A stretch of DNA of 64,000 nucleotides from Candidatus Sulfotelmatobacter sp. (GTDB lineage Bacteria > Acidobacteriota > Terriglobia > Terriglobales > Acidobacteriaceae): assembly GCA_036500765.1 (NCBI GenBank), contig DASYBM010000004.1, positions 1,240,001 through 1,304,000 on the forward strand, written 5' to 3'. The notes under the pieces were generated by a model that had not been told where the DNA came from, made no database searches, and saw only the letters and a program-made list of their open reading frames with translations. Positions 59,864 through 62,997 of this stretch are shown piece by piece. Position numbers and translations under genes: made by a program. The first letter of the stretch is position 1, and each line of letters begins with the position of its first letter.

Positions 59864-60814
59864 ATGAGCTCCATGGCTCTCTACCTCATCACTGGCATCG
59901 GCGGCTTCATCGGATCGTCTCTGGCGCGCGAGCTCCTTTCGCGCGGCGAACTAGTGCGCGGCGTCGATAATTTTTCTACGGGCAAGCGGGACAATCTCAC
60001 TGACATTCTGGATCGCATCGACTTCCGCGAAGCCGATATCACCGACTTGAACGCCATGCATGCCGCCTGCGCCGGCGTGGACTTCGTGCTGCACCAGGCC
60101 GCGATCCCTTCGGTACCCAAATCGGTTCTCGATCCGCTCGGCAGCAACCAGGCCAACGTCGATGGCACCGTCAACGTGCTCATCGCTGCGCGCGATGCCA
60201 AGGTCAAGCGCGTGATCTATGCCGCGTCATCCTCGGCCTATGGCGATACTCCAACGCTTCCCAAGCATGAAGCAATGAAGCCCGATCCGATTTCTCCCTA
60301 CGCCGTGGCCAAGCTGGCCAGCGAACACTACCTGATTTCTTTTTACCGATGTTATGGCCTCGAGACCGTCGCCCTGCGCTACTTCAACATCTTCGGCCCG
60401 CGGCAGGATCCCTCGTCGCCCTATTCCGGCGTGTTGGCGAAATTCATCGCCGTAATGCTGCGCGGCGAGCAACCCATGATTTTCGGTGACGGCGAGCAAA
60501 GCCGCGACTTCACTTACATTGACAACGCCGTCGAAGCAAATCTGCTGGCCTGCAAAGCACCCGCAGCGCAAGCCGCCGGACAAGTCTTCAACGTCGCCAC
60601 CGGCCGCCGCTGCACGCTCAATGAAACCTTCAAGCTCTTGCAGCCTCTGACCTCGTATTCCGGACAGCCCCTGTACGGTCCCGAGCGCGGCGGCGACATC
60701 AAACACTCGCTGGCTGACATCTCCAAAGCCGAAGCCGCTCTCGGCTACAAACCCAAAGTAGATTTCGAAGAAGGCCTGCGGCGTACAGTGGAGTGGTATC
60801 GGCGAAGAGATTAG
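59864..60814 (+). CDS. NAD-dependent epimerase (extended SDR, UDP-sugar type)
   Basis: The 316-residue protein has the extended-SDR cofactor motif TGIGGFIGS (10-18), DNFSTGKRDN, the AASSSAYGD segment and the catalytic Tyr146/Lys150 pair in SPYAVAK. RYFNIFGPRQDP and YGPERGGDIKHSLADISKAE are characteristic of UDP-N-acetylglucosamine/UDP-glucuronate C4-epimerases of the WbpP type. It probably makes UDP-sugars for surface polysaccharide. The ATG at 59873 is an alternative start. No other sugar gene adjoins. Confidence 0.9.
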   Translation: MSSMALYLITGIGGFIGSSLARELLSRGELVRGVDNFSTGKRDNLTDILDRIDFREADITDLNAMHAACAGVDFVLHQAAIPSVPKSVLDPLGSNQANVDGTVNVLIAARDAKVKRVIYAASSSAYGDTPTLPKHEAMKPDPISPYAVAKLASEHYLISFYRCYGLETVALRYFNIFGPRQDPSSPYSGVLAKFIAVMLRGEQPMIFGDGEQSRDFTYIDNAVEANLLACKAPAAQAAGQVFNVATGRRCTLNETFKLLQPLTSYSGQPLYGPERGGDIKHSLADISKAEAALGYKPKVDFEEGLRRTVEWYRRRD

Positions 60815-60964
60815 AGCCGCCAGAATAGAAATAGTACGAGGCAAGATTCCGCTAGCCGGCAACTCTCGTTCATAGAATGTTCACATAGTCGTAATGCAGG
60901 AGTAGTCGCTCTCGGCGTAACATTGTGCATTCGTTGACTCACGGTCGACGGAGGAGCATGAGTT

Positions 60965-62140
60965 ATGAAAAGGCTAGGTCTAGTTCGGACTGCGGGGATG
61001 CTGCTTGCTTTTTCCCTGGCCATAGCAGCTGCCTTGCCTGCTCAAACGCTGCAAACTGTGGTTTCATTCAACAGTTCCGGGGGCTATCACCCCTATCTCC
61101 CGCCATCACTGGCACCAGACGGTACCCTATACGGCACGACGTATTGGGGCGGAACCAACGATTATGGCACGGTGTTTAAGCTTACGCCATCCGGTACCCT
61201 TACGACGCTCGCCGATTTCTGCATTCAGGGGCCGCCCAATTGCGAACACGACGGGTTCGTGATCGTAGGCAGCGATGGGAACGTCTATGGCACGGACCCA
61301 GGAGGCGGGGACTCAAACGGTGGAACGTTCTTCGAAATCACGTCCGCAGGTGTCGTGAGCGTCCTTTATAACTTCTGCTCTCTGGCTAACTGCGCCGACG
61401 GCTCCGGCCCAGGAGTGGTGCTGCAGGGCAGCAACGGCAACTTCTATGGGGTGACCGCAGCAGGAGGCACCGGCCAGCACTCCTCGGGCACTGTCTTCCA
61501 AATCACGCCCTCAGGCGTCCTGACCACGATTTACAACTTCTGCTCTCTTACTAACTGTGCTGACGGCAGTGGCCCACTTACGTTGGTGGAGGGCAGCGAC
61601 GGAAACTTCTACGGTGCGACCGGCCAAGGCGCCACAAATTCCGATGGTACAGTTTTCCAAATCACGCCCTCAGGCACCCTAACCACTCTTTATAGGTTCT
61701 GCTCTCTTGCTAACTGCGTCGATGGCCAATATCCCGCGGGGTTGATACAGGCGACGAACGGCAACCTGTACGGCACAACGAACTCGGGCGGTACCCAGAA
61801 TCGCGGTACGGTCTTTCAGCTCACGCCATCCGGCACTCTTAAGACGCTCCACAATTTCTGTTCTAGTGCCAACTGCGCCGACGGTAACGGCTATGGTTCT
61901 TATCTGATACAGGGCCGCGATGGCAACTTCTATGGAACGACCCAGACGGGCGGAGCCCTAACGAGAAACTATTGTCCTGACGGCTGCGGAACATTGTTCC
62001 AACTCACGCCCGGCGGTGTGTTGAGCACGCTTTTCCATTTTTGCACGCAGAGCGCCTGCACGGACGGCAATGAGCCGGTGGGCATCGTGCAAGCCAGCGA
62101 CGGCTCATTTTATGGGACAACGTATTGGGGGGGGGACTAA
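60965..62140 (+). CDS. Secreted GloVer-type protein 3, 5' part (frameshifted at G9 tract)
   Basis: A signal peptide (GMLLAFSLAIAAALPAQ) is followed by six complete repeats and the start of a seventh (turns YWGG, PGGG, AAGG, QGAT, SGG, TGG, then YWGG). Between repeats sits a Cys-containing FCSLANCADG segment not found in the other two proteins. The frame stops at 62138-62140, right after a run of nine G's (62127-62135), in the middle of repeat 7. The missing half of that repeat continues in another frame. Without one G the protein would have about 616 residues and be complete. Confidence 0.8.
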   Translation: MKRLGLVRTAGMLLAFSLAIAAALPAQTLQTVVSFNSSGGYHPYLPPSLAPDGTLYGTTYWGGTNDYGTVFKLTPSGTLTTLADFCIQGPPNCEHDGFVIVGSDGNVYGTDPGGGDSNGGTFFEITSAGVVSVLYNFCSLANCADGSGPGVVLQGSNGNFYGVTAAGGTGQHSSGTVFQITPSGVLTTIYNFCSLTNCADGSGPLTLVEGSDGNFYGATGQGATNSDGTVFQITPSGTLTTLYRFCSLANCVDGQYPAGLIQATNGNLYGTTNSGGTQNRGTVFQLTPSGTLKTLHNFCSSANCADGNGYGSYLIQGRDGNFYGTTQTGGALTRNYCPDGCGTLFQLTPGGVLSTLFHFCTQSACTDGNEPVGIVQASDGSFYGTTYWGGD

Positions 62141-62816
62141 CTGCCCTGCGCAAGGCTGTGGCATAGTTTTCAACTGGTCGCCCAACGTTGCCGTGGCGCC
62201 CACGTTTACGCCGGCTTCACTGAGCTTCGGAAGTCAAGCGGTCGACACCACCTCTGCGGCGAAGTCAGTGACGATCAAAAACACCGCTACCGGCGACGTT
62301 GTTCTTGATTTCACCAATTTCGCGGTCAACCCGCCATTCGCGATTTCAGCCAACAACTGCGGCGCTACGTTGGGTTCGGGAGGTAAGAGTTGCAAGGTCA
62401 GCATCACATTCACACCCACGGCTTTGGGAGCCGTAAATGGCGCGTTCAGCGTTTCCGACAACGCTCCAGGTAGTCCTCAGACAGTGCCGCTTTCTGGCAC
62501 CGGCATCGTGCAGACGACTCTGACGCCCAGCAGCCTGACATTTGCAAAGCAAAAAGTCGGCACGACCAGCGCGGCCAAGAACGTGACGTTAAAAAACAAC
62601 CTGCCCACAACGTTGACGGGGATTTCGTATTCGGCAGCGGCACCATTCGCTGTCTCCACTTCGACCTGTGGCACGACGCTGGCGACCAAAGCAAGCTGCA
62701 CAATCAGCGTGACCTTCTCGCCGACGACAACCGGCATCGCAACCGGTACCCTGAGCGTGAACGACAGCGCTGACAATAGCCCGCAGACAGTAAGCCTCAC
62801 GGGCACCGGGGACTAG
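62070..62816 (+). CDS. GloVer protein 3, 3' part: end of repeat 7 plus two Ig-like 'choice-of-anchor D' domains
   Basis: This frame resumes the 3' half of repeat 7 (GGTNCPAQGCGIVFNWSP). Two beta-rich modules of about 100 residues follow: LSFGSQAVDTTSAAKSVTIKN ... PFAISANNCGATL ... SVSDNAPGSPQTVPLSGTG, and LTFAKQKVGTTSAAKNVTLKN ... SVNDSADNSPQTVSLTGTG. Such ASPM-SPD-2-Hydin-like Ig modules commonly end secreted acidobacterial proteins. The ATG at 62070 is probably not a natural start. It should be read as one gene with the frame ending at 62140. Confidence 0.75.
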   Translation: MSRWASCKPATAHFMGQRIGGGTNCPAQGCGIVFNWSPNVAVAPTFTPASLSFGSQAVDTTSAAKSVTIKNTATGDVVLDFTNFAVNPPFAISANNCGATLGSGGKSCKVSITFTPTALGAVNGAFSVSDNAPGSPQTVPLSGTGIVQTTLTPSSLTFAKQKVGTTSAAKNVTLKNNLPTTLTGISYSAAAPFAVSTSTCGTTLATKASCTISVTFSPTTTGIATGTLSVNDSADNSPQTVSLTGTGD

Positions 62817-62873
62817 CGCTCGGCGAGCGCCGGGAATTTACCTTGAAGAAATGAACACATTCCAAGGGAAATA

Positions 62874-62906
62874 AAAAGCCGCCTTTCACGAGGCGGCTTT
62901 TCTTTA
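62874..62906 (+). terminator. Terminator after GloVer protein 3
   Basis: An 11-bp perfect stem (62874-62884 with 62891-62901) has a 6-base loop and is followed by CTTTA. The A-stretch on the left makes it bidirectional. Confidence 0.85.
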
Positions 62907-62997
62907 ATTGACGTATCCGTCGCAAACCGAAGGGCCTTGCGCCCCGCATTACGTTGGTTATCTACGTCCCTACTACTCGCATCGCTACAGTGAGGGC

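What the first reader, a model, noticed from the sequence alone, without database searches (positions are those of the whole stretch)
60965..62816. GloVer protein 3 split by a G9 tract inside repeat 7
The seventh repeat is complete only if one G is removed. A homopolymer of nine G's in a secreted-protein gene is the classic setup for phase variation, though it is also a sequencing-error hotspot. The switch would drop the Ig-like C-terminal modules and leave an open propeller.
Basis: partly seen in the sequence, partly recalled or inferred. Interest (0 to 1): 0.6.

Follow-up and report, generated by a model that had tools for sequence, protein, structure and literature searches.

The report
Propeller gene broken in a G run
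A soil acidobacterium's gene for a secreted, propeller-shaped protein is cut in two by one extra G in a run of nine; the run is an ordinary by-product of the protein's repeat motif, the break is a chance slip or an assembly error, and nothing found points to a purpose-built on/off switch.

Summary
A G9 tract (62127-62135, the longest homopolymer in the window) sits in the last GloVer repeat. The upstream frame stops at 62140; the next frame runs open to 62816. Read as G8, the two frames join into one secreted protein: seven GloVer repeats plus two ASH/choice_anch_D modules. The downstream frame supplies the final strand (CGIVF) that all 29 other GloVer ORFs examined in this genome have. A genus relative encodes the same layout in one intact ORF. 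The predicted fold is a beta-propeller, so the stated consequence of the break is plausible.

The phase-variation reading is not supported. The tract is what chance codon use at a Trp-Gly-Gly motif gives: synonymous shuffles of the GloVer genes expect 1.3 runs of G8 or more, 1 is seen, and runs of 6 or more are depleted. No orthologue keeps the tract, because relatives lack the gene at this site. GloVer frameshifts in relatives do not sit at long G runs, MutS and MutL are intact, and long G tracts are few. Coding G/C tracts of 7 or more elsewhere mostly keep frame, so the assembly is not generally bad at them, but one wrong tract cannot be excluded. Reads would decide.

The parts
60950..60956 (+). 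likely ribosome binding site GGAGGAG, 8 bases before the ATG at 60965
   Evidence: read directly from the sequence
60965..62140 (+). upstream frame: N-terminal signal-like stretch, six complete GloVer repeats and the first part of the seventh; stops right after the G9
   Evidence: ORF; TIGR03803 E 1.3e-96, 7 stretches; repeat positions
62090..62186 (+). seventh GloVer repeat, split between the two frames at the tract (QASDGSFYGTTYWGG / TNCPAQGCGIVFNWSPN)
   Evidence: profile match ends at position 16; end of last repeat in 29 paralogues
62127..62135 (+). G9 tract, frame break; TGG GGG GGG would be Trp-Gly-Gly
62136..62816 (+). downstream frame: rest of repeat 7, short linker and two ASH/choice_anch_D Ig-like modules, stop at 62814-62816
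   Evidence: NF012200 E 5.4e-37, PF15780 E 1.2e-18; 57% identical to the ASH part of L296
62874..62901 (+). terminator-like hairpin (12 pairs) after the second stop, consistent with one transcription unit
   Evidence: consensus scan

Best explanation
This is one gene for a secreted, probably seven-bladed beta-propeller (GloVer repeats) followed by two Ig-like ASH modules. The Trp-Gly-Gly motif of its last repeat happens to be written TGG GGG GGG, which makes a slippage-prone G8. In this assembly the tract reads G9, a +1 frameshift that ends translation before the last propeller strand and removes the ASH modules. The change is incidental: either a recent sporadic slip in the sequenced population or a single-tract sequencing/assembly slip, roughly equally likely. 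It is not a dedicated switch. Shown here: one gene by architecture, the frame break, the chance origin of the tract. Inferred: that full length is the working form, how the extra G arose, and the closed ring.
For: The downstream frame supplies exactly the strand that all 29 other GloVer ORFs examined have. A relative has the same architecture in one 810-aa ORF, and the alignment crosses the junction. A terminator-like hairpin lies only after the second stop, apart from weak matches. Codon shuffles of the GloVer genes expect 1.3 runs of G8 or more (1 seen) and 17.3 of G6 or more (8 seen). The same motif gives in-frame G7/G8 in relatives. The gene is absent at this site in relatives, so the tract is not an old conserved feature. 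MutS and MutL are intact. Breaks in GloVer genes of relatives are at no homopolymer (L034) or a C5 (L043).
Against: A second GloVer gene of the same genome is broken beside a G6 run (L184). G/C tracts of 9 or more are somewhat commoner genome-wide than extrapolated. Nothing else in either frame is disabled, as a switch would also require.
Confidence: 0.8

Rival explanations
1. Sequencing, PCR or assembly slip only: all cells carry G8 and make the full-length protein. This is a sub-branch of the best explanation, not additional to it.
For: G8-G11 tracts slip in PCR; a multiplex assay over-estimates phase variation 20-35-fold for this reason (PMC4965091). Both halves are otherwise intact.
Against: Nearly all G/C runs of 7 or more inside long ORFs of this assembly keep frame, including a G9 in a PEP-CTERM-type gene.
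Confidence: 0.4
2. Evolved phase variation: the tract is kept because G8/G9 slippage turns the propeller-plus-ASH surface protein on and off.
For: Tract length is in the range used by known poly-G loci; secreted protein; both halves intact; another GloVer gene broken beside a G run.
Against: Tract number as expected by chance and G runs depleted in the family; no conservation; break lies after 388 codons; mismatch repair present; no length variation could be shown.
Confidence: 0.1
3. Slippage of RNA polymerase or ribosome on the G9 makes both a short and a full-length protein from the same gene.
For: Homopolymers of this length can be slippery, and both frames are open.
Against: No stimulatory element was looked for or conserved context found; the relative with the same architecture uses one plain frame.
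Confidence: 0.05
4. Two separate genes, or a stably shortened GloVer protein followed by an untranslated remnant.
For: An ATG at 62070 opens the second frame.
Against: That start lies upstream of the break and encodes no signal peptide; the second frame begins with the end of repeat 7; the short product lacks a strand that 29 of 29 paralogues have.
Confidence: 0.05

Closest known systems
GloVer-repeat proteins (NCBIfam TIGR03803) with choice_anch_D/ASH tail (NF012200, PF15780), e.g. L296 in a genus relative
   Same: Signal-like N-terminus, seven GloVer repeats, then ASH modules; last half-repeat joined to ASH by a short linker
   Different: L296 is one open frame with three ASH stretches and no G tract at the junction; ours is split by a G9
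Poly-G phase-variable loci of Campylobacter jejuni (PMC4965091)
   Same: Poly-G tract of 7 or more inside a reading frame, where a one-base change breaks the gene
   Different: There, length variation among colonies is measured and the tracts are an unexpected feature of an AT-rich genome. Here the tract is expected from codon use in a 58% G+C genome and no variation has been shown
Homopolymer frameshifts such as inlA of Listeria monocytogenes (PMC2831843)
   Same: Single-base indel in a homopolymer truncates a surface protein
   Different: That study concerns poly-A/T tracts enriched near 5' ends; this is poly-G after 388 codons

Membership tests
GloVer-repeat protein (TIGR03803) | tandem matches above the curated cut-off | tested here: met
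   316 bits against a cut-off of 44, 7 stretches
GloVer-repeat protein (TIGR03803) | complete last half-repeat ending in a VF-type strand | tested here: not met
   absent in the 391-aa ORF, present in the other frame; 29 of 29 paralogues have it
choice_anch_D / ASH module | match above the curated cut-off | tested here: met
   126.6 bits against 45 (NF012200), 67.5 against 27 (PF15780)
beta-propeller | predicted fold matches solved propellers | tested here: met
   Foldseek hits to galactose oxidase, PLL lectins and others for the paralogue and the truncated product; predictions only
poly-G phase-variable contingency locus | in-frame homopolymer whose length change breaks the frame | tested here: met
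poly-G phase-variable contingency locus | tract longer or more frequent than codon usage gives | tested here: not met
   1 run of G8 or more against 1.3 expected; runs of 6 or more depleted
poly-G phase-variable contingency locus | tract kept in orthologues, or many such tracts in surface genes | tested here: not met
   no orthologue at the site; only two runs of G7 or more in the coding part of 31 GloVer pieces
poly-G phase-variable contingency locus | length varies among cells or strains | not testable with these tools
   no reads and one genome per species

The most novel reading that the evidence does not exclude
A soil acidobacterium phase-varies a secreted propeller-plus-Ig surface protein through a G8/G9 tract, perhaps together with other members of its family of about 31 GloVer genes.
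Probability: 0.1. Interest if true: 0.5.

Novelty: new member of a known kind. Interest (0 to 1): 0.15.

Why it matters
If the tract really switched, it would be an example of contingency-locus surface variation in a free-living soil acidobacterium and a handle on the unknown role of GloVer proteins. As it stands it shows that a Gly-Gly repeat motif makes slippage-prone G runs that can look like switches, and that GloVer proteins are probably propellers whose last half-repeat is always completed.

Tried and rejected
Four-letter-code read-through of the whole gene: the word recurs in frame elsewhere and garbles the protein; no fused protein was folded, an intact paralogue was used instead. Home-made coding HMM for frameshifts: first version faulty (only its homopolymer counts are used), later versions dominated by overlapping operon genes and insensitive to this very break. 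They were replaced by a direct test of open frames at homopolymers, whose other split signatures look mostly like gene borders and were not resolved one by one. Orthologue comparison by synteny: no orthologue exists. A search for GloVer in the paper library found nothing. Two of the tool calls on Orsi et al. failed on my search terms; only its abstract was read.

Full report
Observation. The window lies in a 5.04-Mb, 17-contig genome at C4:1240001-1304000. Named relatives found by protein search are mostly Acidobacteriaceae, Terriglobia and Candidatus Sulfotelmatobacter. A run of nine Gs occupies 62127-62135 and is the longest homopolymer in the window. The ORF from 60965 stops at 62138-62140, directly after it; a second frame is open from the tract to 62816. 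The first ORF has seven stretches matching TIGR03803 (GloVer); the second frame has two choice_anch_D/ASH modules.

One gene, not two. The seventh repeat in the first frame ends at model position 16 (YWGGD*), and the second frame continues TNCPAQGCGIVFNWSP. In all 29 other GloVer ORFs examined from this genome the last half-repeat is finished with a strand of the CGTVF or GVVFEITP type. A genus relative (L296, genome G068) has the same layout, GloVer repeats then ASH modules, in one 810-aa ORF, and its junction aligns with ours. A 12-pair terminator-like hairpin follows the second stop; + strand matches inside the gene are weak.

Structure. Predictions for an intact paralogue (L185, pLDDT 87.6) and for the truncated product (pLDDT 84.0) both match solved beta-propellers such as galactose oxidase and PLL lectins. 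In the paralogue an N-terminal strand (33-39) and a strand after the last Gly-Gly (411-416) are assigned; in the truncated model the first strand begins only at residue 55 and the final strand is missing. This fits an unclosed ring, but it rests on secondary-structure assignments of models; no coordinates were inspected.

Where the tract comes from. Trp-Gly-Gly is written TGG GGN GGN. The same motif in relatives gives G7 or G8 runs in intact frames, including TATTGGGGGGGGAGC in L223/L120. Shuffling synonymous codons among 31 GloVer coding pieces of this genome predicts 4.9 runs of at least 7 and 1.3 of at least 8; 2 and 1 are seen (our tract counted as G8), and runs of at least 6 are depleted, 8 against 17.3. 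No selection for G tracts is visible in this family.

Conservation. In genus relatives that keep the block, the epimerase and the RR-PilZ gene are neighbours without a GloVer gene between them; several carry other, unrelated genes there. The best match to the protein in other genomes searched is about 50% identical. So the gene is a lineage-specific presence and the tract has no orthologue. A repeat-motif-plus-G7 pattern was found in 4 of 45 genus genomes, and its stricter form in no other of 396 sampled phylum genomes, most of them distant.

Is the assembly to blame? Nearly all G/C runs of 7 or more in long ORFs, in about 1.15 Mb sampled plus the listed long tracts, are read through in one frame, including a G9 in a PEP-CTERM-type gene. 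The assembly is therefore not generally poor at G runs. One wrong tract is still quite possible, because G8-G11 tracts slip in PCR (PMC4965091). No reads are available to me.

Is it a switch? Against: chance origin, no conservation, MutS and MutL intact, and frame breaks in GloVer genes of relatives away from long G runs (L034 at no homopolymer, L043 at a C5). For: a second GloVer gene here (C16, L184) is broken beside a G6 run, and both halves of our gene are otherwise intact. I put an evolved switch at about 0.1.

Verdict. A correct observation with an ordinary explanation: a chance G8 in a repeat motif that reads G9 in this assembly, through a sporadic slip or an assembly error.

Noticed in passing
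G000 C16:151858-151863 (L184:3359-3364, minus strand): A second GloVer gene is split in its first repeat beside a G6 run; the signal-peptide frame stops and the remaining repeats follow in another frame.
   Followed up: partly
window 60803-62946: The interval between the epimerase and the RR-PilZ gene holds different genes in different genus relatives (a hydrolase, a methyltransferase, a reductase-like ORF, or nothing), so it looks like a variable insertion slot (gene types judged by eye).
   Followed up: partly
window about 62947-62997: A stretch CATTACGTTGGTTATCTACG... just before the RR-PilZ gene is conserved in nearly all relatives compared, also where the rest of the gap is not; perhaps its promoter or operator.
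   Followed up: no
G000 C4:1597956-1597964 (L225, L083): A PEP-CTERM-type secreted protein carries a G9 tract in an intact frame, next to a close tandem paralogue without it.
   Followed up: no
G000 C4:472461, C4:565523, C4:635501, C11:334108: Four further G/C tracts of 9-10 bases lie in intergenic or 5'-end positions, possibly affecting promoters or starts.
   Followed up: no
whole genome G000: About 31 GloVer genes (154 repeats) in one 5-Mb genome, some with a TIG domain after the repeats; match numbers vary strongly among genus relatives.
   Followed up: partly
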